Of a stretch of DNA of 64,000 nucleotides, positions 1-60,821 are shown piece after piece. Source of the stretch: an uncultured Ruminococcus sp. Lineage in GTDB: Bacteria > Bacillota > Clostridia > Oscillospirales > Acutalibacteraceae. The stretch covers positions 32,116-96,115 of the forward strand of contig CADCKR010000002.1 in assembly GCA_902802105.1 (NCBI GenBank), in the 5' to 3' direction. Numbering within the stretch: the stretch's first letter is position 1; each line of letters starts with the position of its first letter. Below the pieces are notes generated by a model that was not told the DNA's origin, did not search any database, and worked only from the letters and a program-made list of their open reading frames with translations. The position numbers and the translations under genes are program-made.

Positions 1-60
1 GCGGCGGCAGCGCAGAGCCTGCACCGGCGAGCCGCCGGCGCAAAATTCATTTCCCCTGAC
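1..60 (-). repeat. R1 dispersed repeat, fragment
   Basis: This GC-rich palindromic stretch ends in a reversed form of the R1 terminal motif (near AAATGAATTTTG on the minus strand) and contains the R1 core GCGCAGAGCCTGC. The fuller copies are at 34481-34684 and 60619-60821. It lies upstream of the efp promoter and may continue beyond the window edge. Confidence 0.5.
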
Positions 61-75
61 TACAGAAATTTTCCC

Positions 76-104
76 TTGCAATTTTATACGCGGTATAGTA
101 TAAT
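76..104 (+). promoter_or_regulatory. Sigma-A type promoter of efp
   Basis: TTGCAA at 76-81 and a perfect TATAAT at 99-104 are separated by 17 bp. The predicted start is about 75 nt upstream of the efp start codon. Confidence 0.75.
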
Positions 105-184
105 ATTAGGAGTATAAAGAGCCGTATGAAAAAATTTCCATCCGGCTCGCATCTTGTACATTTCTTAATCAGGAGGAAGTTTTT

Positions 185-742
185 ATGATCACAGCAGGCG
201 ATTTCAGAAACGGCGTTACGTTTGATATGGACGGACAGGTCGTTACAATTATTGAGTTCCAGCACGTTAAACCCGGAAAGGGCGCAGCTTTCGTCCGTAC
301 AAAGATCAAGAACGTCATCACAGGTGCCGTTATTGAAAAAACCTTTAACCCCAACGATAAGTACCCCACTGCTTTCATTGAGAGAAAGGATATGGAATAT
401 CTCTACAACGACGGCGACCTCTACTACTTCATGGATATGGAAAGCTATGAGCAGATCCCGATCAGCGCTTCTGTTCTCGGCGACAACTTCAAGTTTGTCA
501 AGGAAAATATGCAGTGCAAGATCCTTTCCTACAAGGGCAGCGTTTTCGGCGTAGAACCGCCTACATTCGTTGTTCTTACCGTTACACAGACAGATCCCGG
601 TTTCAAGGGCGATACTGCTACCAACGTAACAAAGCCCGCTACACTTGAAACAGGCGCCGAGATCAAGGTGCCGCTCTTCATCAACGAGGGCGATCAGATC
701 CAGATAGACACAAGAACAGGCGAGTATATGTCAAGAGCCTGA
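185..742 (+). CDS. efp: Elongation factor P
   Basis: EF-P binds between the P and E sites of the ribosome and relieves stalling at consecutive prolines. The 185-residue length is the normal bacterial length, with the KOW-like N-terminal domain followed by two OB domains. The tip loop reads PGKGAAF, with Lys32 at the position that is modified in many bacteria. No epmA/epmB-type modification gene lies nearby, so modification cannot be judged. The ATG follows an AGGAGG site at 171-176. A CD1247-like gene follows 28 bp downstream, probably on the same transcript. The protein continues without break to a typical C-terminus. Identification is secure. Confidence 0.97.
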
Positions 743-770
743 TCTCTGACTGTACTGCGGAGGGAATGAA

Positions 771-1229
771 ATGAAAATAACGGAAAAAGCAGCTTATGTA
801 AAGGGTCTTGTGGACGGCCTTGAGCTTGACCCCAAGGATAAGCAGACAAAAGTATTCAAGGCTCTTGTTGACCTTGTAAACGAAATGGCTGAGGAGATCT
901 CCAATCTCGAACAGTGTTATGATGACGTATGCGATCAGATAGATGCTCTTGATGAGGATCTTGCAGGCGTAGAGGATATTCTCAACAACGATGAGGATGA
1001 TGACGATTATGAGAGTCTTTGCAGCTGCGGCTGTGATGACGCTGCCTATGAAGTCACCTGCCCCACCTGCGGAACTGTCATCGGTCTTAACGAAAGCGAT
1101 CTCGGTCAGGGCGGCATGACCTGCCCGAGCTGCGGTGAGACTCTTGAATTCGACTATGATGAGGACGAACTTGATGACAAGGACGATGACGCTGAGGAGA
1201 ATGCTGAAAACGATCCTGAGCTTGACTGA
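771..1229 (+). CDS. CD1247-type acidic zinc-ribbon protein
   Basis: This 152-residue acidic protein has three visible parts. The N-terminal ~65 residues are helical (KAAYVKGLVDGLELD onward) and resemble the domain named CD1247 in clostridia. A Cys-rich middle follows with CSCGC, then CPTCG and CPSCG pairs, consistent with one or two zinc-binding knuckles. The tail is dominated by Asp and Glu. Zinc binding is inferred from the paired CPxCG motifs. The family is usually found beside efp in clostridia, as here, but I know of no established function. The gene is followed by a hairpin terminator at 1246-1283. Confidence 0.8.
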   Translation: MKITEKAAYVKGLVDGLELDPKDKQTKVFKALVDLVNEMAEEISNLEQCYDDVCDQIDALDEDLAGVEDILNNDEDDDDYESLCSCGCDDAAYEVTCPTCGTVIGLNESDLGQGGMTCPSCGETLEFDYDEDELDDKDDDAEENAENDPELD

Positions 1230-1245
1230 TCGTCGGGTAGATTTT

Positions 1246-1283
1246 GCGGAATCTTGCAACAGCAGGCAGGATTCCGCTTTTTG
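1246..1283 (+). terminator. Intrinsic terminator after the efp transcript
   Basis: GCGGAATC at 1246-1253 pairs with GATTCCGC at 1270-1277 and five T follow. It lies between the zinc-ribbon gene and the site-2 protease gene. Confidence 0.75.
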
Positions 1284-1312
1284 GTTATGACACCGAAAGG
1301 AGTAAAAGCTAT

Positions 1313-2041
1313 ATGCTTATACAGCTCATAAGACAGGGCATGGACATCACCTCCGTGCTGATCTATATCGCGTCGGTACTGATGATAATTTTTCTCGTCA
1401 ACCCCATACACGAGTGTGCCCACGGACTTATCGCATACAAGCTGGGCGACAGGACTGCCAAAAACATGGGCAGACTGACCCTCAACCCTATGGCGCACCT
1501 TGACTACATGGGCGCGATCACAATGCTCATAATAGGCTTCGGCTGGGCAAAGCCCGTGCCCGTGAACCTCCGCAATTTCAAAAAGCCTCGCCTCGGCATG
1601 ATGCTGACGGCGCTTGCGGGTCCCGTATCGAACCTGCTGGCGGCTATACTCGGCGGTCTGATATTCAATCTTATCAATACCATTATGATAAAGAACGGCA
1701 CATTTGTTTACTTTAACGGCAGCGTCTATCTTAATTCCGGATATGATCTCGGCGCATTGAAATATGTGTTCATGTTCCTGGAGTTCTTTATCGTCATCAA
1801 TATCTCGCTGGCTGTGTTCAACCTGATACCTATTCCCCCTCTCGACGGATCAAAGATACTTCTGTCCTTCCTTCCTGCGTCCGCATCCTACAAGGTGCAG
1901 CGCTACGAGATGTACATTTCCATCGTACTGCTCATACTGGTGGTGACAGGGGGAATCAGCAACATCCTGTACCCTGTACAGGGTTGGTTCTACAGCATCA
2001 TAAGCAAGCTGACCGCCCTGCCGTTCTCGTGGGCATGGTGA
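1313..2041 (+). CDS. Site-2 protease family membrane metalloprotease (M50)
   Basis: This 242-residue polytopic membrane protein belongs to the M50 family, whose members cut substrates within or near the membrane. The zinc motif HECAH (His33, Glu34, His37) lies in the first helix region, and the second conserved segment NLIPIPPLDGS supplies the usual Asp. There is no PDZ domain, as in the short YwhC-like subgroup, so it is not RseP or SpoIVFB-like in architecture. The ATG at 1313 follows AAAGGAG at 1296-1302. The gene directly precedes scpA, an arrangement common in clostridia. The substrate is unknown. Confidence 0.88.
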   Translation: MLIQLIRQGMDITSVLIYIASVLMIIFLVNPIHECAHGLIAYKLGDRTAKNMGRLTLNPMAHLDYMGAITMLIIGFGWAKPVPVNLRNFKKPRLGMMLTALAGPVSNLLAAILGGLIFNLINTIMIKNGTFVYFNGSVYLNSGYDLGALKYVFMFLEFFIVINISLAVFNLIPIPPLDGSKILLSFLPASASYKVQRYEMYISIVLLILVVTGGISNILYPVQGWFYSIISKLTALPFSWAW

Positions 2042-2075
2042 TCCACGGACGTCCCGTAATACAGGAGAATGCAAA

Positions 2076-2804
2076 TTGGAAAAGCTTTCCTACAAAACAG
2101 ACGTGTTTGAAGGTCCTCTCGACCTTCTTCTGCATCTGATAGAAAAAAACAAACTTAATATTTATGATATACTCATCTCCGAACTGCTTGACCAATATAT
2201 GGAGCAGATAAACCTCATGCAGCAGCAGGATCTCGACATTGCCGGAGAATTTCTCGCTATGGCTTCAAAGCTGATACAGATAAAATCAGCAATGCTGCTG
2301 CCTAAATATGAGGAAGCCGAGGAAATGCGCAGGGAGCTGTCCGGTCAGCTTATTGAATACAGGAAGTGCAAGCGTGTGGCGGCCGTGCTCTCATCAAAGA
2401 TCAGCTTTGACAGCTATTGCAGAGAGCCTTCAAAGATCAGGGCTGATATGAAATACAAGCGCAGCCATGAGCCCTCTTACCTTATCCCCTATTACCTCTC
2501 TGCCGTGGGGCGGGGCAAGGTAAGGATACCGCCGCCGAAGGATGCTTTTTCCGGCATAGTCGCAAGAAGGATAGTTTCCGTAAGCTCAAAAATATACAGC
2601 GTAATGCGCAAGCTGCGCAGAGAAAGCAGCAAGCCCTATCGTGAAATGTTCGATGATGCTGCCGACAGGAGCGAGCTTGTGGCAACATTTCTTGCAATAC
2701 TTGAACTCATTAAGGGCAAGCGTGTCCGTGTTATCGGCGACGGAGAGGACTGCGAGCTGAAACTGATATCCGGTGGTGAAACAAATTGGAACGAGCAAAG
2801 CTGA
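2076..2804 (+). CDS. scpA: Segregation and condensation protein A
   Basis: ScpA is the kleisin subunit that bridges the Smc heads in the bacterial condensin complex. The diagnostic N-terminus FEGPLDLLLHLIEKNKLNIY is present, followed by the QDLDIAGEFLAMASKLIQIK helix and a C-terminal winged helix. At 242 residues it is full length. A TTG start sits behind AGGAGA. The 3' end overlaps scpB by 19 nt, implying coupled translation. Smc itself is encoded at 14.0-17.6 kb on the other strand. Confidence 0.96.
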   Translation: MEKLSYKTDVFEGPLDLLLHLIEKNKLNIYDILISELLDQYMEQINLMQQQDLDIAGEFLAMASKLIQIKSAMLLPKYEEAEEMRRELSGQLIEYRKCKRVAAVLSSKISFDSYCREPSKIRADMKYKRSHEPSYLIPYYLSAVGRGKVRIPPPKDAFSGIVARRIVSVSSKIYSVMRKLRRESSKPYREMFDDAADRSELVATFLAILELIKGKRVRVIGDGEDCELKLISGGETNWNEQS

Positions 2805-3427
2805 AAAGTACAATAGAAGCCGTATTATTTGCCTGCGGAACGCCCGTGGAGGCTGACAGGATAGCTCAGGCTCTTGAGATCAGCGCTGACTATGCGGCAG
2901 ATGTTTGCGAGGAGCTGCTCAGGGAATATGCAGACCGTGACAGCGGCATACGCATAGTAAGGCTGAATAAAAGCTACCAGATGTGTAGCCGTGAGGAATA
3001 TGCCGGAGCAATAAGAGCCGTTATGGATATCAAACGCAACTCTCCGCTTTCTCAGGCCGCAGCAGAGGTGCTTGCGGTCATTGCCTACAATCAGCCCGTA
3101 ACCAAGGCTTTTGTCGAGCAGGTGCGCGGAGTAGACTGCTCAGGCGTTATCAGCGGTCTTATCGCGCGTCAGCTGATAGAAGAAAAGGGGCGCCTTGAGC
3201 TTCCGGGCAGACCGCTGGTCTATGGGACTACAGAGCACTTCCTGAGATGTTTCAATATTTCCTCCATAGATGAACTGCCGCCGCTTCCCGATGATGATGA
3301 CGGCGAAGCATCACGGAATGAAAACGACGCTATTACCTTTGATGATTATTTATCCGCACAAAACGAAAGCATCCCGGCAAGCGGAAGCGCCGGAAACAGC
3401 AAGACCGATTCGGGTGATCTGACATGA
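2786..3427 (+). CDS. scpB: Segregation and condensation protein B
   Basis: ScpB is the dimeric winged-helix (kite) subunit that binds ScpA in condensin. The N-terminus KSTIEAVLFACGTPV and the block AAAEVLAVIAYNQPVTK are characteristic of the family. After the second winged helix (to about residue 165) comes an acidic, poorly conserved tail. The start appears to be TTG within the end of scpA, and the stop overlaps the next gene by 4 nt (ATGA). The exact start is less certain than the identity. Confidence 0.95.
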   Translation: MERAKLKSTIEAVLFACGTPVEADRIAQALEISADYAADVCEELLREYADRDSGIRIVRLNKSYQMCSREEYAGAIRAVMDIKRNSPLSQAAAEVLAVIAYNQPVTKAFVEQVRGVDCSGVISGLIARQLIEEKGRLELPGRPLVYGTTEHFLRCFNISSIDELPPLPDDDDGEASRNENDAITFDDYLSAQNESIPASGSAGNSKTDSGDLT

Positions 3428-4155
3428 ATGTATTTCTGCTGATACTTGCGGGTATCATATTGATAATACTTCTGCTGCTTTTGTGTCCGTTCTCAATAAA
3501 GATAGTCTATGACGAAAAGGTGCATCTGAGCGTGGGATATTTCTTTCCCGTTTTCAGGATACCGCTTGAAAAGAAAGAAATAACCGACCCCAAAAAGCTT
3601 GCACGTCTGGAAAAGAAGAAGCAGAAAAAAGAGGAAAAGAAAAAGCGCCGTGAAGAAAAGCAGCGCATTAAAGAAGAAAAACAGCGCATGAAGCTAAAGG
3701 CTCAGGGCAAGGAGCTGCCCGAAAAGAAGCAAAACTTCATTGCCGGCCTGATAAAAAAAGAGGGACTTTCGGGGCTTATCGACCTTTTGAAGGAATTAGT
3801 AAGCATACTTGCGGGACTGATGAAAAAAACAACAGACCATCTTGTTATTTCAAAAATGGATCTGCAAATTGCTCTTGGCAGTGAGGATGCCGCGCACACG
3901 GCAGTGCTTTACGGTCAGACGTGCAGCGCAGTATATCCGCTTATAAACATCATTTCCTCTCACGTCAAAAAATGCAGGCACAGGGAGCGCATCGCTCCTG
4001 TATTCACCTCTGAAAAAACAAGGATACGCTTCATACTGCAGGCAAGAATACAGCCCTTCTTCATTCTCAGCGGCGCTGTAAGGGCGGGGCTGAGATTCCT
4101 TAAAACAATGCTTTCAAAGAAAGCCGCAGCTCAGCCTCAAAGCTCTGAGCGGTGA
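3424..4155 (+). CDS. DUF2953 membrane-anchored protein
   Basis: This 243-residue protein has one N-terminal transmembrane helix (about residues 3-22). A long, highly charged Lys/Glu/Arg segment (about 55-105) is probably a coiled coil. A C-terminal domain containing LYGQTCSAVYPLI follows, as seen in the DUF2953 family. The family usually lies between scpB and ytfJ in clostridia, and that order holds here. The start ATG overlaps the scpB stop. No enzymatic motif is visible. A sporulation role is suspected only from the neighbouring ytfJ and dacF. Confidence 0.75.
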   Translation: MNVFLLILAGIILIILLLLLCPFSIKIVYDEKVHLSVGYFFPVFRIPLEKKEITDPKKLARLEKKKQKKEEKKKRREEKQRIKEEKQRMKLKAQGKELPEKKQNFIAGLIKKEGLSGLIDLLKELVSILAGLMKKTTDHLVISKMDLQIALGSEDAAHTAVLYGQTCSAVYPLINIISSHVKKCRHRERIAPVFTSEKTRIRFILQARIQPFFILSGAVRAGLRFLKTMLSKKAAAQPQSSER

Positions 4156-4297
4156 TCTGCTGCCTATCCGACACATATCAAATTCAGCAGCGGCAAGCAC
4201 AAGTGTTGCCTTAAAGCTACAGCTCAGCTTTCGATGGGCTTTCACTTGAAGATCCACATTACAAAAACTGATTTCCGTGCACATTCAATGAAAGCTA

Positions 4298-4326
4298 TTG
4301 CAAAATTGTTCCAAGTGTATTATACT
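4298..4326 (+). promoter_or_regulatory. Promoter of ytfJ
   Basis: TTGCAA at 4298-4303 and TATACT at 4321-4326 are 17 bp apart, 42 nt before the start codon. This is a sigma-A-like form. I did not find a convincing sigma-F sequence, although ytfJ homologues are forespore genes in Bacillus. Confidence 0.55.
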
Positions 4327-4368
4327 TATCAATATAAAACAAGTAAAAAACAAAAGGCGGTGTTTATT

Positions 4369-4827
4369 ATGAGTGAACGTCCTATCGAAGGTCTGATGGG
4401 CACAACACTTGACAAGATCAGGGATATGGTAGATGTAAATACTATCATCGGTTCACCTATCACTGTTCCGGGCGGCACGACCGTAATTCCCGTTTCAAAG
4501 GTAATGTACGGCTTCGCTTCCGGCGGTTCTGAATTCAACAACAAGAACGAGAGCAAGGATAACCTTTTCGGCGGCGGCGCAGGCGCAGGCGTTACGATCA
4601 CGCCTATCGCTTTTATCGCTGTCACAAAGGATGACGTAAAGCTGCTTAATGTCACCAACTTCAAAGATTCTCAGGACAGAGCCGTTGGCCTTGTTCCGGA
4701 GCTTCTTGACAAAATAATCGGTCTTTTCAAAAAGGATAAGTCAGACGATAAAAACAATGACAGCTCCGAAGAAAAGAATAATGACGCCGAAAATGCCGAA
4801 ACAGGCATTGACGACCCGAAGGTATGA
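4369..4827 (+). CDS. ytfJ: GerW/YtfJ family sporulation protein
   Basis: This 152-residue protein has the family signature in order: IEGLMGTTLDKIRDMVDVN, then VIGSP-like and VPGGTTVIPVSKV segments, a glycine stretch GGGAGAG and the TPIAFIAV block. The C-terminal 40 residues are an Asp/Asn/Glu/Lys tail. GerW (YtfJ) is a forespore protein needed for germination responses in Bacillus subtilis. That role is carried over by homology. The ATG at 4369 follows AAAGGCGGTG. An upstream in-frame extension to 4234 runs through the promoter region and was not used. Confidence 0.92.
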   Translation: MSERPIEGLMGTTLDKIRDMVDVNTIIGSPITVPGGTTVIPVSKVMYGFASGGSEFNNKNESKDNLFGGGAGAGVTITPIAFIAVTKDDVKLLNVTNFKDSQDRAVGLVPELLDKIIGLFKKDKSDDKNNDSSEEKNNDAENAETGIDDPKV

Positions 4828-4846
4828 CAAATCAAGCCGACTGATA

Positions 4847-4905
4847 CGCCTGCCCTGTGCATATAAATTCTTATAGGTATTTATATAAAGGGCAGGTGTT
4901 TTTTT
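4847..4905 (+). terminator. Terminator-like hairpin containing the dacF ribosome-binding site
   Basis: CGCCTGCCC at 4847-4855 pairs with GGGCAGGTG at 4890-4898. An inner stem, ATATAAAT with ATTTATAT, extends it. Seven T follow at 4899-4905. The 3' arm is also the only Shine-Dalgarno-like sequence before the dacF TTG start at 4904, so the structure could both terminate ytfJ transcripts and mask dacF translation. Confidence 0.75.
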
Positions 4906-6028
4906 GTTTACTAAAAAGATCATACCGGCGGTGCTGTCGATGGCTGTGATGCTGTGTGCTTTATGCCTGAGCGGCAGTACAAATATCCGCACACAGGATA
5001 TCCCTTTAAGCGCAGGATCGGCAATACTTATCTGCGCTGACAGCGGACAGGTACTCTGCGAAAAGGATCCCGATCAAAAAATGCCGATCGCAAGCATAAC
5101 CAAAATAATGACAGCCGTTATTGCTTTGGAATATGCAAAAAAGAACGACATCGAAATCCGTTTTACAAAACAAATGGAGGCGGAGGGTTCAAGCCTTTAC
5201 CTTAAAGAAGGAGAGGTGCTCAAACTCTCTCAGCTGACAGCAGGAATGATGTGCGTATCGGGAAACGATGCTGCAAACGCTGTGGCCATAGGCATTGCAG
5301 GCAGCCTTGAGGACTTTGCCGTCATGATGAACGAAAAGGCGGCAGAGCTTGGCATGAGCCGCACTCATTTTGTAACGCCTTCGGGGCTTGACGATGAAGA
5401 GCATTATTCAACAGCCCGTGATATGGCTTTGCTGTGCCGTTATGCAATGTCGATGGAAAGCTTTGCTTCCATAGTATCTAAAAAAAGCCTGACCGTCAGC
5501 TATGTGCTGCCGAAGGGAAAAACTCAGAGCTGTACCAACCACAACAAGCTGCTTGCCGCCTATGACGGCTGCATCGGCATAAAAACAGGCTTCACCAAAA
5601 GGGCAGGAAGAACCTTGACGTCATGTGCAGAAAGGGACGGCGTAAGACTCATTGCAGTAACGCTGAAAGCCCCCGATGATTGGAACGACCACAAAAGACT
5701 GCTTGACTACGGATTTTCTGTTACAGAAGGAATAAAAGCCGTCAAGAAAGAACAAGACTTCCTGCTGCCCGTTGTCGGCGGAAATGCCGGCTTTGTAAAA
5801 GTAAGACCCAGGGACGACTGTATATGCACTGTCCTGAAAGGAAAAGAACCTGACATAACGATAAGGATATTCATGCCGCACTTTGTATATGCGCCGCAAT
5901 ACAAGGGCACGTCTGCCGGAAGGATATGCTGCTGCATAAACGGAGTGAAAACAGCCGAAACAGAGCTTATATACGCCGAGGATGCATATTTTAATGAAAA
6001 CGACCAACCGCTTGACCAAAAAGGATGA
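4904..6028 (+). CDS. dacF: D-alanyl-D-alanine carboxypeptidase, DacF type
   Basis: This penicillin-binding serine peptidase (S11) trims the terminal D-Ala of peptidoglycan stem peptides. DacF homologues act on spore cortex. An N-terminal signal peptide (MFTKKII then a hydrophobic stretch) is followed by all three active-site motifs: SITK (Ser64, Lys67), SGN, and KTG within IGIKTGFTKRAG. The ~100-residue C-terminal domain is present, but no clear amphipathic anchor is seen. The proposed start is a TTG at the end of a T-tract immediately after a strong hairpin, which is unusual. The family assignment is firm. The DacF rather than DacA label rests on the neighbouring ytfJ and on scpAB synteny. 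Confidence 0.88.
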   Translation: MFTKKIIPAVLSMAVMLCALCLSGSTNIRTQDIPLSAGSAILICADSGQVLCEKDPDQKMPIASITKIMTAVIALEYAKKNDIEIRFTKQMEAEGSSLYLKEGEVLKLSQLTAGMMCVSGNDAANAVAIGIAGSLEDFAVMMNEKAAELGMSRTHFVTPSGLDDEEHYSTARDMALLCRYAMSMESFASIVSKKSLTVSYVLPKGKTQSCTNHNKLLAAYDGCIGIKTGFTKRAGRTLTSCAERDGVRLIAVTLKAPDDWNDHKRLLDYGFSVTEGIKAVKKEQDFLLPVVGGNAGFVKVRPRDDCICTVLKGKEPDITIRIFMPHFVYAPQYKGTSAGRICCCINGVKTAETELIYAEDAYFNENDQPLDQKG

Positions 6029-6034
6029 GGAAAT

Positions 6035-6805: not shown

Positions 6806-6806
6806 A

Positions 6807-6850
6807 ACAAAAGTCAGTGTACCGGAGCGATCCGGACACTGACTTTTATT
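6807..6850. terminator. Bidirectional terminator between rluB and leuS
   Basis: AAAAGTCAGTGT (6809-6820) pairs with ACACTGACTTTT (6835-6846), with an inner CCGG/CCGG stem. A- and T-runs on both sides allow termination of the convergent rluB and leuS transcripts. Confidence 0.85.
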
Positions 6851-6857
6851 TTAAATA

Positions 6858-9706: not shown

Positions 9707-9709
9707 TAT

Positions 9710-21744: not shown

Positions 21745-21767
21745 GTGAATTTGACCATAATCTGCGG

Positions 21768-21812
21768 AAATCAATTTGTACCGGTGATTTACACGGGAGA
21801 ACCACCTTCCCG
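21768..21812 (+). repeat. R1-like degenerate fragment
   Basis: CGGAAATCAATTT followed by a TTACACGGG-containing segment resembles the R1 terminus (CGGAAATCAATTTTGG...TTACACGGG) seen at 34483 and 60620, with changes. It lies between sigE and trmFO. The rest of this interval (to 22019) holds the sigE terminator and no gene that I can see. Confidence 0.4.
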
Positions 21813-26070: not shown

Positions 26071-26103
26071 GACGAATCGGGAGCGCAGGCTCTGCGCCGG
26101 CGA
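26071..26103 (+). repeat. R1 repeat, short fragment
   Basis: GAATCGGGAGCGCAGGCTCT followed by GCGCCGGC is the R1 right end, as at 34665-34684 and 60795-60821. It lies between the divergent promoters of the HAD gene and spoIIE. Confidence 0.6.
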
Positions 26104-26189: not shown

Positions 26190-28541
26190 TTGAAGGTCAG
26201 AGAGCTTGCCGCAAAATTTTCATTACAGAATATTCTGCAAAACACTAATGCACGTAAAATTTTCTTTCAGGTGATATGTTTCAGCTGCGGATTCATCGCT
26301 TCGGGCGGCAAAATTTTCGGCGCCTATTCGCCGTTTGGCGTTTCTGTCGCTTCGGCCGTGCCGTTCAGGGGAATATTCTCCGCCGTGATCGGTTCTTCTA
26401 TGGGATATATCATTATGGGCGGCAGAACAGGCAATTTCAGGTATATTGCCGCAATGCTCGCCGTTGCAGCAATACGCTGGACGCTCAACGACATAAAGAA
26501 GCTCAGCCGTCATTCGCTGTATGCTGCCGCTGTATGCTTTGTTCCCACACTCGCTACAGGGCTTGCCGCTCTCAGCGTTACCGGAGTAAGGCCGGAAACA
26601 GTTTTCAGGTTTATAATTGAAGCTCTTATCGGCGCTGTTGCAGCATATTTCTTTTCAAGAACAGTCGTTATACTGCACGGAACAAAAACTCTCGGTATGC
26701 TGCTTATGCAGGAGGTAGCCTGTCTCGTTCTAAGCGGATGCATATTCATACTTTCTCTTTCCGGAATATGCATAGGCACTGTTTCACTCGGCAGGATAGC
26801 CGCAATAATCTGCATACTTATGGCGTCACGCTACGGCAGTACGGGCGGCGGCGCTGTTGCGGGGATATCTACCGGAATAGTGCTCAGCCTTTCGGACACG
26901 TCGCTGTATTTTATCGGTGCGGCATACGCTCTGGGCGGGCTTATGAGCGGTATATTCTCACAGGCAGGGCGCATTATATCGTGCGTTATCTTCACTCTCA
27001 GCGTTATACTCATATCTTTTCAGGGAGAGCAGCTGAGCACAACCTTCACGATGATATATGAATGTATTGCCGCATCCGTTGTATTCATTATACTTCCCAA
27101 AAATACAGGAAGCTTCATATCCGCAGTATTCTCATCATCCAAAGACGAAAACTGCGAGGGACTCAGACGCTCTATAATAATGCGGCTCGACTTTGCATCC
27201 AAAGCGCTTTCGGACGTATCCGAGGACGTTGAGGAGGTCGCCAGCAAGCTTTCAAGGTTAGTCACACCTACACTCGACAGCGTTTATGAAAAAGCCGTTG
27301 AGAGTACCTGCAAAAGATGCGGGCTGAAAGTATTCTGCTGGGAGCACAAGGACGGTGTGGCTATTGAATCGTTCCAGACTGTAAATCCTGTACTTATCGG
27401 GCGCGGCAGTATTGAGCCGGAGGATTTCTGTGATGACTTCCGCAGAAAATGCTGCCGCACTGCAGAAATGGCAAGAGCCGTCAACAAATGCTACCAGAAT
27501 TATCTTGCATCGGAGGCCGCATCAAAGAGAGTTGACGAGGTGCGTTCTGTTGTTGCAGGACAATTCTGCGGGCTGGGCGATATTCTCGGAGAAATGGCTG
27601 ACGAATACGAAAATTACGAATTCTTCGACAACGAGCTTTCGGACAGGATATCCATGAAATTCAAGGAGCTTGGGATGATACCCACAGACATAAGCTGCCG
27701 GGTAGATCATCTCGGACGCATGACTGTTGAAGCGGGCATATATGACGATGACAGGCGCAGGATCAAACGCAGCATTATACTGCATGAGGTCTCAAAAATA
27801 TGCGGCAGACACTTTGAAGCTCCCTCTGTCACGGCGGCTTTCGGTAAATGCAGGATACTTCTATGCGAGCGCCCGTCATTTGATGTTGAGATCGCATCAA
27901 GCCAGCACGTATGCGGCAGCGGGCTGCTTTGCGGCGATAATCTCAGATATTTCAACGACGGCATGGGAAGAATGATAACCGTACTGAGCGACGGCATGGG
28001 CACTGGCGGCAGGGCTGCCGTTGACGGAGGTATGGCTGTAAGCATAATCTCAAAGCTGATAAAAGCCGGACTTGGTTTTGACTGCTCGCTTAAAGTAGTA
28101 AACTCCGCGCTGCTTGTAAAATCCGAGGATGAATCCCTTGCCACTCTTGATGTTGTATCAGTTGACCTTTACACGGGTGACGTTGACTTTATGAAGGCGG
28201 GAGCAGCCGTATCATTCATACGCAAAGGCGGAGAGATGTACCGTGTTGAAACGCCCTCTCTGCCTGTAGGCATACTGCCGGATGTAGAATTCACCTGTAC
28301 TGAGGATATATTGCAGCCTGATGACATAATCGTGATGGTATCTGACGGTGCGATATCAAGCGGCGAAGACTGGATAGAGCGTATAATCATGAAATGGGGC
28401 AGCGAAAAGGATATGCAGGAGCTTGCGCACCTGATAAACGATGAAGCCACCGCCAGACGTGAAGACGGGCACGATGACGACATAACCGTGATAGCCATGC
28501 GCCTGACAACAAGCGTTTCAGACCTTGCTGCCTGCGCATAG
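26190..28541 (+). CDS. spoIIE: Stage II sporulation protein E, PP2C phosphatase
   Basis: SpoIIE localises to the polar septum and dephosphorylates SpoIIAA, releasing sigma-F. The N-terminal ~300 residues form about ten transmembrane helices. A central region (about 310-570) contains CKRCGLKVFCWE, and the C-terminal PP2C domain has VLSDGMGTGGRAAVDGG and MVSDGAISSG, with metal-binding Asp residues. At 783 residues it is slightly shorter than the Bacillus protein. I use TTG 26190 because GAGGTGG lies 5 nt upstream. GTG 26181 is the alternative. The 3' end abuts an R1 repeat. Confidence 0.95.
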   Translation: MKVRELAAKFSLQNILQNTNARKIFFQVICFSCGFIASGGKIFGAYSPFGVSVASAVPFRGIFSAVIGSSMGYIIMGGRTGNFRYIAAMLAVAAIRWTLNDIKKLSRHSLYAAAVCFVPTLATGLAALSVTGVRPETVFRFIIEALIGAVAAYFFSRTVVILHGTKTLGMLLMQEVACLVLSGCIFILSLSGICIGTVSLGRIAAIICILMASRYGSTGGGAVAGISTGIVLSLSDTSLYFIGAAYALGGLMSGIFSQAGRIISCVIFTLSVILISFQGEQLSTTFTMIYECIAASVVFIILPKNTGSFISAVFSSSKDENCEGLRRSIIMRLDFASKALSDVSEDVEEVASKLSRLVTPTLDSVYEKAVESTCKRCGLKVFCWEHKDGVAIESFQTVNPVLIGRGSIEPEDFCDDFRRKCCRTAEMARAVNKCYQNYLASEAASKRVDEVRSVVAGQFCGLGDILGEMADEYENYEFFDNELSDRISMKFKELGMIPTDISCRVDHLGRMTVEAGIYDDDRRRIKRSIILHEVSKICGRHFEAPSVTAAFGKCRILLCERPSFDVEIASSQHVCGSGLLCGDNLRYFNDGMGRMITVLSDGMGTGGRAAVDGGMAVSIISKLIKAGLGFDCSLKVVNSALLVKSEDESLATLDVVSVDLYTGDVDFMKAGAAVSFIRKGGEMYRVETPSLPVGILPDVEFTCTEDILQPDDIIVMVSDGAISSGEDWIERIIMKWGSEKDMQELAHLINDEATARREDGHDDDITVIAMRLTTSVSDLAACA

Positions 28542-28611
28542 CGCAGAGCCTGCGCCGAATCGGGAGCGGCAGCTTGCCGCCCGTGTAACCTGCCGGCCAA
28601 AATTGATTTCT
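28541..28611 (-). repeat. R1 repeat, internally deleted copy
   Basis: On the minus strand it starts GAAATCAATTTTGGCCGGCA, continues through the GGCGGCAAGCTGCCGCTCCC module, and ends in GCGCAGGCTCTGCGC. Relative to the copies at 34.5 and 60.6 kb it lacks the central ~120 bp. It begins at the last base of the spoIIE stop codon. Confidence 0.75.
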
Positions 28612-34480: not shown

Positions 34481-34684
34481 CACGGAAATCAATTTTGGCC
34501 GGCAGGTTACACGGGCGGCAAGCTGCCGCTCCCGATCCGGCGCAGAAAGTAAACCGGCGTCTGCAAAAGAAAGTTTTTGCAAAGCACCGCGAATGCACCT
34601 GCTTCTACGGGAATGACTAAAGAATGAGCAGAACAAAGCGAGTGTAAACGAGCGGAGCGGACAAGGGTGCGCAGGCTCTGCGCC
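34481..34684 (+). repeat. R1 repeat, full-length (~204-bp) copy
   Basis: It starts CACGGAAATCAATTTTGGCC, carries the palindromic module GGCGGCAAGCTGCCGC, a central segment with CAAAGCACCGCGAATGCACC, and ends in GCGCAGGCTCTGCGCC. The same order is found at 60619-60821. It has no open reading frame. It fills most of the 384-bp interval between recD2 and the Nudix gene, and nothing else is visible there but the Nudix promoter. Confidence 0.85.
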
Positions 34685-39309: not shown

Positions 39310-39320
39310 GTGATTTTGAA

Positions 39321-39375
39321 ATTTTGCGCCGGCAAGTTGCACGGCTGAAACCCTTTTCCTGCAGAAAAACAGTTT
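39321..39375 (+). repeat. R1-like degenerate fragment
   Basis: GCGCCGGCAAGTTGCACGGC followed by TGAAACCCTTTTCC matches the R1 copy at 60635-60670 (GGCCGGCAGGTTACAC, AGCAGAAACCCTTTTCC) with substitutions. Confidence 0.5.
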
Positions 39376-39558
39376 CCGCACGAACCCCCTTCTCAAAACC
39401 GCAGAATTTTGCAGGCTTTTGTCATCGGCTTGCCGGATAACCGCCGCCGTTTATGCAGAATACAGCCTTTCTCCGTCAATGAAAACGATTTTTGACACAA
39501 AATTGTTGCAGCCGACAAGATTTTTGCAATTTTTATGAGTGAATCTTGCGTTAAATAA

Positions 39559-47908: not shown

Positions 47909-47945
47909 GCGCAGAACCTGCGCACCCGTATCCGGCGGCACGAAC
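47909..47945 (-). repeat. R1-like fragment next to an R2 copy
   Basis: GCGCAGAACCTGCGC followed by ATCCGGCGGC resembles the R1 end. It runs within a few bases of the R2 copy at 47949. Confidence 0.45.
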
Positions 47946-53637: not shown

Positions 53638-53720
53638 GAGTAAAAATTCTTATTGATATGGTAAAAATTACAAAAATGTCATACAATAATAGATGTATTT
53701 TACAACAAAAACATAGTTTC

Positions 53721-54501: not shown

Positions 54502-54569
54502 AAAAATACCTCCCTTAGTGATTTTCATGATCGTCCGGTCAGCGCCTAAGCTCTCCGCACTGTTATATT

Positions 54570-55904: not shown

Positions 55905-55951
55905 GTTGAATAACAACTCCAGTCTATTATGCGGACATATCACTGTGTCCG

Positions 55952-55985
55952 AAAAAATCAACGCCGTCCGAAAAGCGGACAGCGG
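55952..55985 (-). terminator. Terminator-like hairpin in the dacA leader
   Basis: On the minus strand CCGCTGTCCGC and GCGGACGGCG-like arms pair around TTTT (CCGTCCG-AAAA-GCGGACAGCGG on plus). A T-run (TTGATTTTTTC) follows. It lies between the promoter and the start, so it could act as an attenuator. Confidence 0.55.
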
Positions 55986-56008
55986 TATATAAACACCTAT
56001 ACATTGTT

Positions 56009-56037
56009 ATTCTACACGAATCAGGCTAAAAACGCAA
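56009..56037 (-). promoter_or_regulatory. Promoter of the DacA-like gene
   Basis: On the minus strand TTGCGT (56032-56037) and TAGAAT (56009-56014) are 17 bp apart. Confidence 0.55.
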
Positions 56038-56190
56038 TGGAACAATGTTATAATTTAAAGCTATATTATTGCGGAAATGTAGTTATTTTTTATGTTTAAA
56101 AAAATAAACCCGCAAATATAACAGCTCGTGAATAATCGCATGAGCTGCCGCGCATAATAATCGTGTACCCAATTTCAAGGAGGTAGTTAT

Positions 56191-56364
56191 ATGACAAGCA
56201 AAGAATTGCTTTATGTTGAGGACGCTCTCGGACATGAGAAGTATTTCAGGACACAGTGCTGCGAGACTATGAACAGACTCCGTGACGGCGAGCTAAGAAG
56301 CTTTGTGCAGCAGCTTGAACAGTCACACAACACGATATTCCAGAGCCTTTACGGTCTGCTTTGA
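56191..56364 (+). CDS. Small spore-coat-associated protein next to a coat F protein
   Basis: The 57-residue protein starts TSKELLYVEDALGHEKYFR and ends IFQSLYGLL. It is helical and polar, with no secretion signal. Small proteins of this type, with ELLYxEDALGHE, are usual neighbours of coat F family genes in clostridia. AAGGAGG precedes the ATG. The stop is followed at 3 nt by the Shine-Dalgarno of the next gene. A possible sporulation sigma site (CATAATAAT near 56153) is weak. Confidence 0.75.
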   Translation: MTSKELLYVEDALGHEKYFRTQCCETMNRLRDGELRSFVQQLEQSHNTIFQSLYGLL

Positions 56365-56375
56365 GGAGGATGACT

Positions 56376-56624
56376 ATGGAAGACAGAGATCTTATGGAAA
56401 ATATGCTTCTGCTTGAAAAGGGAGTGTGCGACCTTTTTATGCACGGAGCAATAGAGTCGTCAAGCCAGGATGTTCATCAGGCTTTTTCAAGCTCTCTGAA
56501 CACTGCGCTCAATATGCAGTCGCAGATATACGGCCAGATGAAAGCAAGAGGCTGGTACAAGCCTGACAGCGCAGAGCAGCAGAAGCTCAGCTCTGTCCGC
56601 ATGAAGTTCGCACAGAACAACTGA
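56376..56624 (+). CDS. Coat F (CotF) domain spore coat protein
   Basis: The 82-residue protein is made of one coat F domain: LMENMLLLEKGVCDLFMHGA, IESSSQDVHQAF, and MQSQIYGQMKARGWY, the family's signature end. In Bacillus, CotF family proteins form part of the spore coat. GAGGAGG (56363-56369) stands 6 nt before ATG 56376. The preceding 57-residue gene overlaps that site. A strong terminator follows. Regulation by sigma-E or sigma-K is likely but not proven by the sequence. Confidence 0.88.
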   Translation: MEDRDLMENMLLLEKGVCDLFMHGAIESSSQDVHQAFSSSLNTALNMQSQIYGQMKARGWYKPDSAEQQKLSSVRMKFAQNN

Positions 56625-56668
56625 TATCCCGCCGCTTTCAGGCGATGCTTTTCCGGACAATAAAACTC

Positions 56669-56714
56669 ACAGGCACAGCAAATCTCCTTACGGGGCTGCT
56701 GTGCCTGTATTTTT
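56669..56714. terminator. Terminator between the coat gene and purL
   Basis: ACAGGCACAGCA (56669-56680) pairs perfectly with TGCTGTGCCTGT (56697-56708) and ATTTTTT follows. The convergent purL also ends here. Confidence 0.85.
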
Positions 56715-56720
56715 TATATA

Positions 56721-59700
56721 TTACTTGAAGTAAGCTGTACCGCTTTCAAATATCTTCTGATCCTTCTCAAAGGGAACATTAAAGTAAAGATCATTTCCCT
56801 TACGCTCAGAGTGACCCATCTTGCCGAGCACACGGCCGTCAGGACTGGTTATGCCTTCAATAGCGCATATTGAACCGTTGGGATTGAAGGTGATATCGTT
56901 TGCAACGCTTCCGTCCGGCGATACATACTGCGTAGCGATCTGACCGTTTGCGATAAGACGCGCAAGAGTTTCATCATCAGCAACAAAGCGGCCTTCACCG
57001 TGTGAGATCGGCACTGCATGGATATCGCCTGCATTGACAAGTGAGAACCACGGCGACTTGACTGAGGTTATCCTTGTATACGCCATGCACGAAATATGAC
57101 GGCCGACAGTATTGAAGGTAAGCGTCGGGTCGTTCGGCCTGAGGTCTGTGATCTCTCCGTACGGAACAAGGCCAAGCTTGATAAGCGCCTGGAATCCGTT
57201 GCATATACCAAGCATAAGACCGTCACGCTTTTTGAGCAGTGTGTTGACCGCTTCGGACACTTTAGGATTACGGAATGTCGTAGCGATGAATTTGCCTGAG
57301 CCGTCCGGCTCGTCACCGCCTGAGAATCCGCCCGGCAGCATTATCATCTGCGACTGCTCGATAATGCGCACCATTTCGTCTATTGTTTCTTCTATATCTG
57401 AGGGCGTGAGGTTGCGCACGATAAGGAGCACAGGCTCTGCGCCGGCCTTTTCAAAGGCTCTTGCAGTATCTACCTCGCAGTTTGTGCCCGGGAACACGGG
57501 AATGAATACCTTTGGCTTAGCTGTCCTGATAACAGGTGATGAGGTGTTTCTTTCTGTATACAGCGGGATATCCGTCTTGTTTTCCGGGCAGGCAGCCTTT
57601 ACCGGGAATACGCCCTCAAGCTTTGAGGTCCAGTCGTTTATAAGGGTATCTATCGGCATTGAGCAGCCGTTTACGGTTATCATGCCGTCATCCGTTGTCG
57701 TACCAAGCTCGTATGATGTAACGGTCTCACTGAGCGCAGCGCCGTCAGCAAGCTCAAGTATCAGCGAACCGCTGAGAGGAGCGAAAAGCTCGTCCTTGGT
57801 AAGTTCCTTGGCAAAGCGTATTCCTATCTTGTTGCCGAAGCTCATCTTTGCAGCAGCAGCAGCCGCGCCGCCCTCCTTGACCGTGTATGCCGAAAGCACC
57901 TTTCCCTCGCTCATAAGCGCATAGACAGCCTTATATACGGCGATAAGCCTGTCCCAATCGGGCATGAGAGAAGCCTTGTCTTCGGGAACAGGAACATATA
58001 TTACCCTTGAACCGCTTTTCTTGAATTCAGCAGAAACAGTCTTTGATGCTTTTGTCATAGCTACGGCAAAGCTCACAAGCGTAGGCGGAACGTCAAGATC
58101 CTCAAACGAGCCGGACATACTGTCCTTGCCGCCGATGGACGGCAGGCCGAGCTTTATCTGAGCGGTGAGCGCGCCCAAGAGAGCAGCGGCAGGCTTGCCC
58201 CAGCGTGAGGGTACATCGTGCAGACGCTCAAAGTATTCCTGGAAGGTAAGTCTTGCTGTCATGGGATCGGCGCCGATAGCAAGGAGCTTCGAGAGAGACT
58301 CAACAACTGCATAAGCTGCGCCGTGGAATGGGCTCCATCTTGAAATGCCGGGGATATATCCGTAAGCCATAGCCGTAGCATCGTCTGTTTCACCGTGGAG
58401 CAGCGGTATCTTTGCTGCCATTGCATCCTGCGGAGTAAGCTGTGTTACGCCTCCGAACGGCATAAGGACCGTAGCAGCGCCTATGCTTGAATCGAAGCGC
58501 TCACACAGACCCTTCTGTGAGCACACCTCAAGCCTTGAAAGGTTAGCCCTGAAAGCACTCTCGGTATCCATTTCAGCAAGCTCTGCGGGAGCCATTCTGC
58601 GGTAGCACCTGCCGGCATCCGGAGCAGTGATATATGCGCTTGCGACCTGAGTTACACCGTTTGTATTAAGGAAAGCTCTGCTGAGGTCAACTATAGTCTT
58701 GCCTCTCCAGTTCATGGTGAGTCTCGGAGATTCCGTTACAACTGCAACGGCAGTAGCTTCGAGGTTCTCCTTGCCGGCTTCTGCGATGAATTTATCAACG
58801 TCCTTCGGGTCGAGCACAACAGCCATTCTCTCCTGAGACTCGGAGATAGCAAGCTCTGTTCCGTCAAGTCCGTCATATTTTTTTGTTACCTTATCGAGAT
58901 CAACTGTCAGACCGTCTGCAAGCTCACCGATAGCAACACAAACGCCGCCTGCGCCGAAGTCATTGCAGCGCTTTATCATAGCAGAGACCGTACTGTTCCT
59001 GAAAAGCCGCTGTATCTTTCTCTCGGTAGGAGGATTACCCTTCTGTACCTCTGCGCCGCAGGTCTCTATTGATTCCATAGTATGAGCCTTTGATGAGCCT
59101 GTTGCGCCGCCGCAGCCGTCACGTCCTGTTCTGCCGCCGAGGAGAACGATTATATCATCCGGAGCAGGCACCTCACGTATAACATTAGACTTTGGCGATG
59201 CGCCGATAACGGCGCCTATTTCAAGTCTTTTAGCCACATAGCCCTTGTCATACAGCTCTGTCACCTGGCCTGTCGCAAGACCGATCTGGTTGCCGTATGA
59301 GCTGTATCCGGCAGCTGCGCCTGTGGTTATCTTTCTTGAAGGGAGCTTGCCCTCCATTGTCTTTTCAAACGGAACAGTCGGGTCGCCCGATCCTGTAACA
59401 CGCATAGCCTGATAAACATAGGCTCTGCCCGAAAGCGGATCTCTGATCGCTCCGCCAAGACAGGTAGCTGCGCCGCCGAAGGGCTCTATCTCAGTCGGAT
59501 GGTTGTGAGTTTCGTTCTTGAACTGTACGAGCCACTGCTCTGTCCTGCCGTCTATTGTCACCGGCACCTCTATGGAGCAGGCGTTTATCTCATCGCTGAG
59601 ATCAAGGTCAGGTATCATGCCTCTCTTTTTAAGGAGCTTCATCCCAACGAGAGCCATATCCATGAGTGAAACATCCCTTGTGCTGTTCTCTCCGTAGATC

Positions 59701-60488
59701 TCGTTTCTGCTCTCGTAATAAAGTCTTAGAGCGTCCTCAATGGTTTTTGTGATCTCGCTTTTTTCTATCTCTACCTTTTCCAGTCTGGTAAGGAATGTAG
59801 TATGTCTGCAATGGTCTGACCAGTATGTGTCGATCACCCTCAGTTCTGTAACGGTAGGATCTCTGTGTTCATCGTCACGGAAGTAATCACGGCAGAATTT
59901 AAGGTCTGCAAGCGTCATTGCAAATCCCATTGAGTCAAAGTATTCCTTCATCCTGTCATCGTCCCATTTGATAAAGCCCTCAACAACTGCAACGTCGGCA
60001 GGTCTTTCGGCCTTCATGTCGAGGCTTTCGGGCTTTTCAAGCGAAGCAAGCCTTGATTCAACGGGGTTGATAAGATAGTGCTGTATTTTGAGGAACTCAT
60101 CGTCTGTAATGTCACCCTTTACAGCGATCAGCTTTGCGCTGACGACCTTGGGTCTTTCGCCCTGAGTAAGAAGCTGAACGCACTGCGCTGCGGAGTCCGC
60201 CCTCTGGTCGTACTGTCCCGGCAGGTATTCCATAGCAAACACCCTGTAAGCCTTGTCTTCGGGAAGTACCTCATCATAAACTATATCTGCATTTGTTTCG
60301 CTGAGGATAGTGTTCTTTGCCTTCTCAAAGCTTTCGCCCTCCAGACCGCTGATATCGTAGCGGTTGATTATCCTTACTGCTTCGATAGCGGCAAGACCCA
60401 GATTGTTTCTCAGGTCAGCCATCAGATTAGAGGCTTCTACATCAAAGCCCTTCCTCTTTTCCACGAATATTCTTTTTACACCACTCAT
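56721..60488 (-). CDS. purL: Phosphoribosylformylglycinamidine synthase, single chain (clostridial type)
   Basis: This enzyme makes FGAM from FGAR, glutamine and ATP in purine synthesis. The 1255-residue chain combines three parts. An N-terminal PurS-like and linker region (to ~200) is followed by the PurL core with YWSDHCRHTTF, FKNETHNHPTEIEPFGGAAT and GGKDSMSGSFED. A C-terminal class I glutamine amidotransferase has LMLGICNGFQALIKLG (nucleophile Cys) and the final His/Glu in SHGEGRF. Single-chain PurL of this type is typical of clostridia rather than Bacillus. The ATG follows AGGGTGG. No other pur gene is adjacent. Confidence 0.96.
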   Translation of the reverse strand: MSGVKRIFVEKRKGFDVEASNLMADLRNNLGLAAIEAVRIINRYDISGLEGESFEKAKNTILSETNADIVYDEVLPEDKAYRVFAMEYLPGQYDQRADSAAQCVQLLTQGERPKVVSAKLIAVKGDITDDEFLKIQHYLINPVESRLASLEKPESLDMKAERPADVAVVEGFIKWDDDRMKEYFDSMGFAMTLADLKFCRDYFRDDEHRDPTVTELRVIDTYWSDHCRHTTFLTRLEKVEIEKSEITKTIEDALRLYYESRNEIYGENSTRDVSLMDMALVGMKLLKKRGMIPDLDLSDEINACSIEVPVTIDGRTEQWLVQFKNETHNHPTEIEPFGGAATCLGGAIRDPLSGRAYVYQAMRVTGSGDPTVPFEKTMEGKLPSRKITTGAAAGYSSYGNQIGLATGQVTELYDKGYVAKRLEIGAVIGASPKSNVIREVPAPDDIIVLLGGRTGRDGCGGATGSSKAHTMESIETCGAEVQKGNPPTERKIQRLFRNSTVSAMIKRCNDFGAGGVCVAIGELADGLTVDLDKVTKKYDGLDGTELAISESQERMAVVLDPKDVDKFIAEAGKENLEATAVAVVTESPRLTMNWRGKTIVDLSRAFLNTNGVTQVASAYITAPDAGRCYRRMAPAELAEMDTESAFRANLSRLEVCSQKGLCERFDSSIGAATVLMPFGGVTQLTPQDAMAAKIPLLHGETDDATAMAYGYIPGISRWSPFHGAAYAVVESLSKLLAIGADPMTARLTFQEYFERLHDVPSRWGKPAAALLGALTAQIKLGLPSIGGKDSMSGSFEDLDVPPTLVSFAVAMTKASKTVSAEFKKSGSRVIYVPVPEDKASLMPDWDRLIAVYKAVYALMSEGKVLSAYTVKEGGAAAAAAKMSFGNKIGIRFAKELTKDELFAPLSGSLILELADGAALSETVTSYELGTTTDDGMITVNGCSMPIDTLINDWTSKLEGVFPVKAACPENKTDIPLYTERNTSSPVIRTAKPKVFIPVFPGTNCEVDTARAFEKAGAEPVLLIVRNLTPSDIEETIDEMVRIIEQSQMIMLPGGFSGGDEPDGSGKFIATTFRNPKVSEAVNTLLKKRDGLMLGICNGFQALIKLGLVPYGEITDLRPNDPTLTFNTVGRHISCMAYTRITSVKSPWFSLVNAGDIHAVPISHGEGRFVADDETLARLIANGQIATQYVSPDGSVANDITFNPNGSICAIEGITSPDGRVLGKMGHSERKGNDLYFNVPFEKDQKIFESGTAYFK

Positions 60489-60571
60489 GTTTTTTCCACC
60501 CTTCTTTTAGTCTTGGGTTATGTCAGCATTCCCGTCATCAGCTGCTGCACTGATCTATGCTGCTATCTCAC

Positions 60572-60600
60572 ATTTTAACATACATTATGATCGTTTTCAA
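60572..60600 (-). promoter_or_regulatory. Promoter of purL
   Basis: On the minus strand TTGAAA (60595-60600) and TAAAAT (60572-60577) are 17 bp apart, about 84 nt before purL. I saw no purine riboswitch in the leader. Confidence 0.7.
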
Positions 60601-60618
60601 GCATAGTTACATTATTAT

Positions 60619-60821
60619 CACGGAAATCAATTTTGGCCGGCAGGTTACACAGCAGAAACCCTTTTCCGGCGGAAAAAGGCGGCAAGCTGCCGCTCCCGAT
60701 TCGGCGCAGAAAGTAAATCAGCGTCTGTAAAAGAAGTCTTTGCAAAGCACCGCTGATGCACCAGCTTCTACGGGGATGACTAAGGAATGAGCAGACACGG
60801 GAGCGCAGGCTCTGCGCCGCC
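60619..60821 (+). repeat. R1 repeat, full-length (~203-bp) copy
   Basis: CACGGAAATCAATTTTGGCC starts it, with an extra AGCAGAAACCCTTTTCCGGC insertion after the first arm. Then come GGCGGCAAGCTGCCGCTCCC and the central segment with CAAAGCACCGCTGATGCACC, and it ends in GCGCAGGCTCTGCGCC. It shares its order and most of its bases with 34481-34684. It fills the purL-thrH interval, where no gene is seen. Confidence 0.85.

What the first reader, a model, noticed from the sequence alone, without database searches (positions are those of the whole stretch)
1..60821. R1: a modular GC-rich repeat, about 200 bp when complete, with shortened versions
Near-complete copies are at 34481-34684 and 60619-60821. 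An internally deleted copy is at 28541-28611, and fragments lie at 1-60, 21768, 26071, 39321 and 47909. The ends are CGGAAATCAATTTTGG and GCGCAGGCTCTGCGCC. The central ~120 bp can be missing while the ends remain, and one copy has an extra AAACCCTTTTCC module. All are between genes, mostly next to promoters or stops. This is the behaviour expected of a mosaic MITE or a transcribed structured repeat.
Basis: seen in the sequence. Interest (0 to 1): 0.7.

Follow-up and report, generated by a model that had tools for sequence, protein, structure and literature searches.

The report
Hairpin-capped mosaic repeats of one genus
The repeat is a patchwork of two spreading DNA elements, one of them a short stretch capped at each end by a tiny hairpin; the hairpins are shared by many species of one bacterial genus while most of what lies between them differs, which hints at an unknown machinery that copies whatever sits between the caps.

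Summary
In detail: R1 matches 98 pieces in its own 2.0 Mb draft genome. It is not one element. The CGGAAATCAATTTTGG end and the AAACCCTTTTCC module are the left arm of a small TIR element (here MITE1). The rest is a separate element of about 200 bp: hairpin, WCCC tail, body, GGGW tail, hairpin. Its caps come from a small set (GCGGCA-AGC-TGCCGC, GCGCAG-AGC-CTGCGC, CCGGCG-AGC-CGCCGG) and lie tails inward (29 inward, 2 outward pairs). The two ends nearly always carry different hairpins (2 of 29 alike, 8.5 expected). One hairpin occurs exactly in 23 of 64 genomes of the genus, with mostly different bodies in the species read; with its tail it occurs once each in 3 of 392 sampled genomes of the order outside the genus. 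Only the caps are conserved as structure, so a body-wide functional RNA is not supported. Sites occupied in one species and not in others support insertion. No target duplication was found at the caps; Y1 (RAYT-type) transposases do not track copy number. Best reading: a non-autonomous REPIN/BOX-like element recognised at its caps by an unidentified enzyme. New variant of a known kind.

The parts
34481..34514 (+). Left arm of MITE1 (terminal repeat CACGGAAATCAATTTT and GGCCGGCAGGTTACACGG)
   Evidence: 50 TIR matches at up to 1 mismatch in 311 kb held versus 0.4 in mononucleotide shuffles; 11 inward TIR pairs at up to 2 mismatches
34515..34529 (+). Cap H1, tail to the right (GCGGCAAGCTGCCGC + TCCC)
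34530..34611 (+). Tail and body block D (34547-34611), the unit that is tandem in other copies
   Evidence: 72 near-full D copies in the DNA held; tandem arrays in L031, L045
34612..34668 (+). Body block E ending in GGGT
34669..34683 (-). Cap H2, tail to the left; right edge of the copy
60619..60678 (+). MITE1 left arm including the GAAACCCTTTTCCGGCGGAAAAAG module (from 60655)
   Evidence: same module inside MITE1 copies; position
60679..60693 (+). Cap H1, tail to the right
60694..60802 (+). Tail, block D (from 60711) and shortened block E (from 60775)
60803..60817 (-). Cap H2, tail to the left
28541..28555 (+). Cap H2 of the shortened minus-strand copy; its first G completes the spoIIE stop codon TAG
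28556..28565 (-). 10-bp linker (on this strand TCCCGATTCG, the tail of H1), all that is left of the body
28566..28580 (-). Cap H1
28581..28611 (-). MITE1 left arm
10..38 (+). Caps H2 (10-24, one mismatch) and H3 (24-38) fused
39..57 (-). MITE1 terminal repeat fragment
21764..21812 (+). Degraded MITE1 left arm
26073..26097 (-). Lone cap H2 with its tail (on this strand TCCCGATTCG)
39320..39411 (+). Degraded MITE1 left half with AAACCCTTTTCC module
47909..47933 (+). Cap H2 (one mismatch) with tail ACCCGTATCC

Best explanation
R1 is a chimera: the left arm of one small inverted-repeat element (MITE1) joined to a second non-autonomous element. The second element is a body of about 170 bp closed at each end by a 15-bp hairpin cap with an inward-facing W-CCC tail (shown). 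The caps come from a small set shared by many species of the genus; the bodies are mostly species-specific (shown for the loci read). The inferred part: an enzyme supplied in trans recognises the folded cap plus tail, probably on single-stranded DNA, and copies or moves whatever lies between two inward caps, without leaving a target duplication. Nested insertion, and recombination between caps, then produce tandem, deleted and fused copies. The enzyme is not identified. The caps are read as structures under selection, the body as cargo.
For: Inward pairs 29 versus outward 2 in G000, and 20 versus 1 in 161 loci of relatives after repeated pairs were dropped (21 versus 1 before); commonest spacing 171 bp. 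Anchoring on the tail alone, not on the hairpin, a stem of at least 5 of 6 pairs lies directly upstream of 110 of 344 tails in G000 versus 4 of 344 ten bases further up (107 of 339 versus 4 with identical contexts counted once), and in relatives of 79 of 385 versus 4 (74 of 377 versus 4); the stems form discrete types, mostly with loop AGC. Cap H1 exact in 23 of 64 genus genomes, up to 95 copies, reversed control 0; H1+WCCC in 5 of 394 genomes of the order, the three outside the genus with one copy each. Relatives' loci were chosen mostly by exact H1, but H2 and H3 in them are also letter-identical to those of G000 (10 and 8 tails). Bodies next to identical caps differ between species, and the whole R1 finds only short pieces in 6 of 63 other genus genomes. 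Site comparison: after spoIIE G000 has cap-linker-cap, G045 another cap with a different body, G020 a hairpin-like stretch in the last codons; in 11 of 18 relative loci the downstream rubredoxin start was recognised, and none of these 11 has a cap of types H1-H5 at up to 2 mismatches in the 330 bases before it. Upstream of the HAD gene 27 of the 29 relatives fetched have no H1-H3 within 420 bases or to the contig end. Body-wide structure absent. H2 sits in 11 of 13 ends of a second MITE found in the DNA held (that DNA was gathered by hairpin, so the share is inflated), and a 20-bp insertion, a one-mismatch H2 with CGCTG on both sides, interrupts block D twice in C4.
Against: No movement was observed. 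No target duplication at the outer caps in 39 clusters (lowest of 392 permutation values 0.02). No transposase was seen between two of the three wide inward pairs; the third was not read. The C4 insertion occurs twice in one array, so it may be one event. 49 of 107 clusters are single caps, and 46 of 200 cap-like hairpins at up to 2 mismatches lack a CC tail. G012 shares block E at 81-85%, and some G020 bodies begin like block F of G000 (L332, L333), so bodies are not always species-specific. Unoccupied sites could also be losses. The genome is a draft of 50 contigs, 89.5% complete.
Confidence: 0.6

Rival explanations
1. REPINs moved by a RAYT-type Y1 transposase.
For: Two palindromes in inverted orientation, mostly intergenic, high copy number, no target duplication seen. 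REPINs are described as REP doublets in inverted orientation and linked to RAYTs (PMC3116915, abstract and passages).
Against: No PF01797 match in G000. Genomes with at least 10 exact H1 copies carry it in 2 of 10, the others in 15 of 54 (Fisher P=1); with any H1, 8 of 23 against 9 of 41 (P=0.38). Of 12 fetched Y1 loci only one (L344) has an H1-H3 cap within the stretch. The two ends carry different hairpins.
Confidence: 0.08
2. The caps are host-functional sites (protein binding, mRNA 3' end protection or nucleoid structure), kept by selection, and the mosaic arises by ordinary recombination between them.
For: Cap sequences agree between species although bodies differ. Clusters lie nearer to gene 3' ends (median 60 bases) than to 5' ends (median 128) by a rough ORF rule.
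Against: 41 of 64 genomes of the genus have no exact H1. Strict inward pairing with a commonest spacing of 171 is not needed for such a role.
Confidence: 0.2
3. A transcribed, structured RNA repeat.
For: Cap stems are conserved as pairings. Full-length consensus folding beats column shuffles (z -6 and -7 on the two strands).
Against: The signal disappears when the caps are removed (z about -1). Single-copy folding z averages -1.7, from +1.6 to -5.6 in 21. No Rfam match.
Confidence: 0.07
4. An ordinary MITE whose terminal repeats happen to contain hairpins, moved by a conventional DDE transposase.
For: MITE1 has TIRs; MITE2 (TIR GGCAAYACCGCACAAAGA) has TIRs and, by eye, a 4-bp duplication in 6 of 6 paired copies, so conventional MITEs exist in this genome.
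Against: The capped element has no shared terminal sequence: its two ends match in type in 2 of 29. No duplication was found.
Confidence: 0.15

Closest known systems
REPINs / REP doublets (Pseudomonas and others)
   Same: Short palindromes in inverted pairs, in extragenic space, tandem clusters, singlets proposed as remnants (PMC3116915, passages)
   Different: Different hairpins at the two ends, WCCC tail, body of about 170 bp, no RAYT found in this genome, mostly different bodies between species that share caps
BOX elements of Streptococcus pneumoniae and S. suis
   Same: Modular repeat with a tandem middle unit and, in S. suis, several kinds of end module; 67-637 bp; found inserted into other repeats (PMC3049150, passages)
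   Different: BOX has terminal inverted repeats and target duplications according to that paper; here neither was found. No direct sequence comparison with BOX was made
Small dispersed repeats of Nostoc (recalled; named in one passage of PMC3116915)
   Same: Very small units (recalled: about 21-27 bp) that sit inside other repeats
   Different: Here the unit is mainly a paired cap around a body. The original paper was not seen
MITEs
   Same: Small, non-coding, many copies, probably moved in trans
   Different: No common terminal sequence and no target duplication for the capped element; MITE1 and MITE2 in the same genome fit better

Membership tests
REPIN | Two palindromic REPs in inverted orientation | tested here: met
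   29 inward versus 2 outward pairs
REPIN | The two REPs are copies of one another, so that the doublet pairs end to end | tested here: not met
   Same cap type at both ends in 2 of 29 pairs, 8.5 expected, permutation P=0.002. Relatives 2 of 20, 6.4 expected, but those loci were mostly chosen for H1, which biases that count
REPIN | RAYT (Y1) transposase in the genome | tested here: not met
   0 matches of PF01797 in G000, a draft at 89.5% completeness; no association over 64 genomes
REPIN | Conserved tetranucleotide (GTAG type, recalled) beside the palindrome | tested here: not met
   The flanking tail is mostly WCCC or TGCC
BOX | End modules around a tandem middle module | tested here: met
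   Block D, single or in tandem, between F and E
BOX | Terminal inverted repeats and target duplication | tested here: not met
BOX | Sequence homology to pneumococcal BOX modules | not tested
   Only Rfam was searched, without a match
MITE | Terminal inverted repeats | tested here: inconclusive
   Met for MITE1 and MITE2, not for the capped element
MITE | Target site duplication | tested here: not met
   None at the caps; none obvious by eye for 11 MITE1 pairs; 4 bp by eye in 6 of 6 MITE2 pairs
MITE | Parent transposon with the same ends | not tested
   The genome was not scanned for transposases other than PF01797; only stretches around copies were read
Structured RNA family | Conserved pairing through the whole element | tested here: not met
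   z about -1 without the caps

The most novel reading that the evidence does not exclude
A genus-wide kit of three to five exact hairpin caps acts as a universal transposition handle: any DNA that comes to lie between two unlike, inward-facing caps becomes a spreading element, with neither a RAYT, nor terminal inverted repeats, nor a target duplication. Unlike caps at the two ends would be required because like caps would form one long, unstable palindrome. This would be a new mode of non-autonomous mobility acting on folded single-stranded DNA.
Probability: 0.25. Interest if true: 0.75.

Novelty: new variant of a known kind. Interest (0 to 1): 0.5.

Why it matters
Small bacterial repeats are usually tied to one transposase through common ends (general knowledge). 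Here the ends are interchangeable hairpins that agree letter for letter between species while most of the contents differ, so ends and contents seem to evolve separately. That lets one ask directly which enzyme reads the cap, because cap-rich and cap-free species exist side by side in one genus (23 of 64 with exact H1). The second long copy also sits where gene order differs: purL lies beside the HAD gene in G000 but its start was found in only 1 of 29 relatives' stretches.

Tried and rejected
Fixed target duplication directly around single caps: no strong peak (best 12 versus 4.9 expected at one offset among 179 sites, which I put down to tandem caps). Target duplication around cap pairs: none. 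RAYT drive: rejected. An autonomous capped transposon inside the wide inward pairs: in two of three such pairs only ordinary-looking genes, a sigma factor-like and a zinc-finger-like ORF in C27 and a membrane protein-like ORF in C17 (my reading, no family search); the third pair (C8) was not read. Body-wide RNA structure: rejected. An apparent stem in block D (TGC-AAA-GCA, GTC-AAAA-GAC, GGT-AAAAG-ACC) uses a different register in each allele and gave no alignment support. Viral spread: three IMG/VR matches to H1+WCCC show none of the body in the flanks printed and look like chance in coding DNA; no plasmid or phage match at E 0.001. Exact H2 outside the genus: 8 places in 7 of the 296 family genomes outside the genus, none with the WCCC tail, probably chance; the reversed control also hit once in that search. 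Searches of open papers listed nothing on this repeat; only listings and passages of two papers were seen. Empty-site comparison at the 60619 copy failed on the left side because the purL start was found next to the HAD gene in only G000 and G046 among the 30 loci. At the 34481 copy the six relatives printed upstream of recD2 did not line up by eye, and gene neighbours there were not compared.

Full report
The repeat is there. The two long copies, the shortened minus-strand copy and the fragments are at the stated coordinates. A blastn of the 204-base copy against its own genome (G000, 2,000,699 bases, 50 contigs, 89.5% complete) gives 98 pieces, and each of the three hairpins is found many times with none for the reversed control (85, 73 and 32 places at up to one mismatch). 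The nearest named relatives by RecD2 protein are uncultured Ruminococcus or Clostridia metagenome assemblies, several with rumen in the title. The genome itself is not named.

R1 is composite. I gathered 311 kb around copies. The end CGGAAATCAATTTTGG is a terminal inverted repeat: 50 matches at up to one mismatch against 0.4 in mononucleotide shuffles, and 11 inward pairs 88-495 bases long at up to two mismatches. The AAACCCTTTTCC module is an internal part of the same element, called MITE1 here. The junction ACACGG-H1, or close to it, occurs in six places by eye, which suggests that the chimera itself was multiplied.

The other part is a capped element. A 15-base hairpin with loop AGC is followed by W-CCC (T-GCC for one type), and the same is found at the far end in the opposite sense. 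In G000, adjacent caps point inward in 29 cases, outward in 2 and in the same sense in 12 (spacing 40-330, up to one mismatch). With looser rules the counts are 28, 2 and 34. Eight of the 28 inward spacings are 170-172 bases. Between the caps lie block F, one to several copies of block D (about 65-68 bases) and block E. Relatives show the same: 20 inward, 1 outward and 21 in the same sense in 161 loci, after two repeated pairs were dropped (21, 1 and 22 before).

Caps are conserved as pairings and come in discrete types. To avoid choosing hairpins because they pair, I anchored on the tail motif alone. Of 344 tails in G000, 110 have at least 5 of 6 stem pairs directly upstream, and 4 when the frame is moved by ten bases; in loci of relatives 79 of 385 against 4. 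With identical contexts counted once these are 107 of 339 against 4, and 74 of 377 against 4. The stems are GCGGCA, GCGCAG, CCGGCG and, more rarely, CCGGCA and CCAGCG. The loci had been gathered largely around hairpins, so the proportion is not a genome-wide rate, but the shift control is fair. Letter identity of H1 between species follows from searching for it exactly; that of H2 and H3 in relatives' loci (10 and 8 tails) does not.

The two ends differ. In G000, where all three cap types were searched genome-wide, only 2 of 29 inward pairs have the same cap at both ends, against 8.5 expected (permutation P=0.002). Some pairs lie in one array and are not independent. In relatives it is 2 of 20 against 6.4, but most of those loci were chosen because they hold H1, so that second result should carry little weight. 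This is the reverse of what terminal inverted repeats or REP doublets give.

Distribution. Exact H1 occurs in 23 of 64 genomes of the genus, from 1 to 95 copies, control 0. H1 with WCCC occurs in 5 of 394 genomes drawn from the order: G000, another species of the genus, and three single copies elsewhere. Exact H2 occurs in 9 of 300 of the family, in more than two copies only in two genomes of the genus; the reversed control hit once. The eight places outside the genus lack the tail. In the species read, the letters after the tail mostly differ (G001, G005, G012, G020, G022, G030 against G000), though some G020 bodies begin like block F. The whole R1 finds only short pieces in 6 of 63 other genus genomes, among them block E in 12 places of G012 at 81-85%.

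Evidence of insertion. At the end of spoIIE, G000 carries H2-linker-H1-MITE1 arm, and the first base of the cap completes the stop codon. G045 has a one-mismatch cap five bases after its stop codon with a different body, G020 has a hairpin-like stretch in its last codons, and G005 and G030 have none there. Of 18 relative loci scanned, the start of the downstream rubredoxin was recognised in 11; none of these has a cap at up to two mismatches in the 330 bases before it. In some of the 11 another gene may lie between. Upstream of the HAD gene beside the second copy, 27 of the 29 relatives fetched (of 46 with a match) have no H1-H3 at up to one mismatch within 420 bases or to the contig end; G022 and G052 have H3. 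In G005 and G030 the promoter lines up by eye with G000 from about TAAAATAG onward, just right of the copy, so the copy appears to have cut into the promoter region. The left side is not comparable because the neighbouring gene differs.

Mechanism. Shown: inward caps, discrete pairings, unlike ends, cap sharing without full body sharing, presence/absence between species, no structure in the body, no duplication found at the caps. Inferred: an enzyme acting in trans on the folded cap. Not shown: the enzyme. Y1 transposases do not fit: none in G000, 2 of 10 cap-rich against 15 of 54 other genomes. Two MITE-like families live in the same genome; MITE2 has 4-base duplications by eye in 6 of 6 paired copies, and 11 of the 13 MITE2 ends in the DNA held carry an H2 cap, 10 of them at one position. 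That DNA was gathered by hairpin, so the share is inflated, but caps clearly also ride on another element.

Limits. The genome is a draft, and repeats lie at many contig ends. The ORF calling was a simple longest-first rule: 94 of 107 clusters are not inside an ORF, while ORFs cover 79% of the DNA held and 89% of the window. The searches of open papers gave two analogues, REPINs (PMC3116915, passages) and BOX (PMC3049150, passages), and listed nothing on this repeat. Nostoc small dispersed repeats are named from recall and from one passage.

Noticed in passing
G000 C32:15403, C22:24090, C13:44449 and others (L161, L158, L088): A second MITE, TIR GGCAAYACCGCACAAAGA, with 4-bp target duplications (CTAA, TCAA, TTAA, TAAG) by eye in 6 of 6 paired copies; several copies run into contig ends.
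   Followed up: partly
window 28539-28541: The stop codon of spoIIE is completed by the first base of the inserted hairpin; in G020 a hairpin-like stretch forms the last codons of the same gene.
   Followed up: partly
window 60818-60900: The second long copy seems to have cut into the promoter region of the HAD gene: sequence of G005 and G030 lines up only to its right.
   Followed up: partly
L190 and L192, upstream of recD2: Other GC-rich hairpin repeats (TTTGGGGCAGCGCCCCAAGACGG; TTTGGGGCAAAGCCCCAAG) in relatives, in L190 in tandem.
   Followed up: no
G012, 12 places: Block E with its cap end is present at 81-85% identity while block D is not matched there, so E may be an older or independently moving module.
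   Followed up: no
G000 C5:20145, C14:14343, C24:9749, C10:41041, C38:7541: Caps repeatedly abut block D at the same point (CAGCG/CGCTG), as if this were a preferred breakpoint or insertion point.
   Followed up: partly
L032, L048, L050 and other arrays: Low-complexity words (CTCCACACTCCACACTCCTAACTAATTTT, TTTTAACTTTTCACTTTT) replace part of block F or D in several copies.
   Followed up: no
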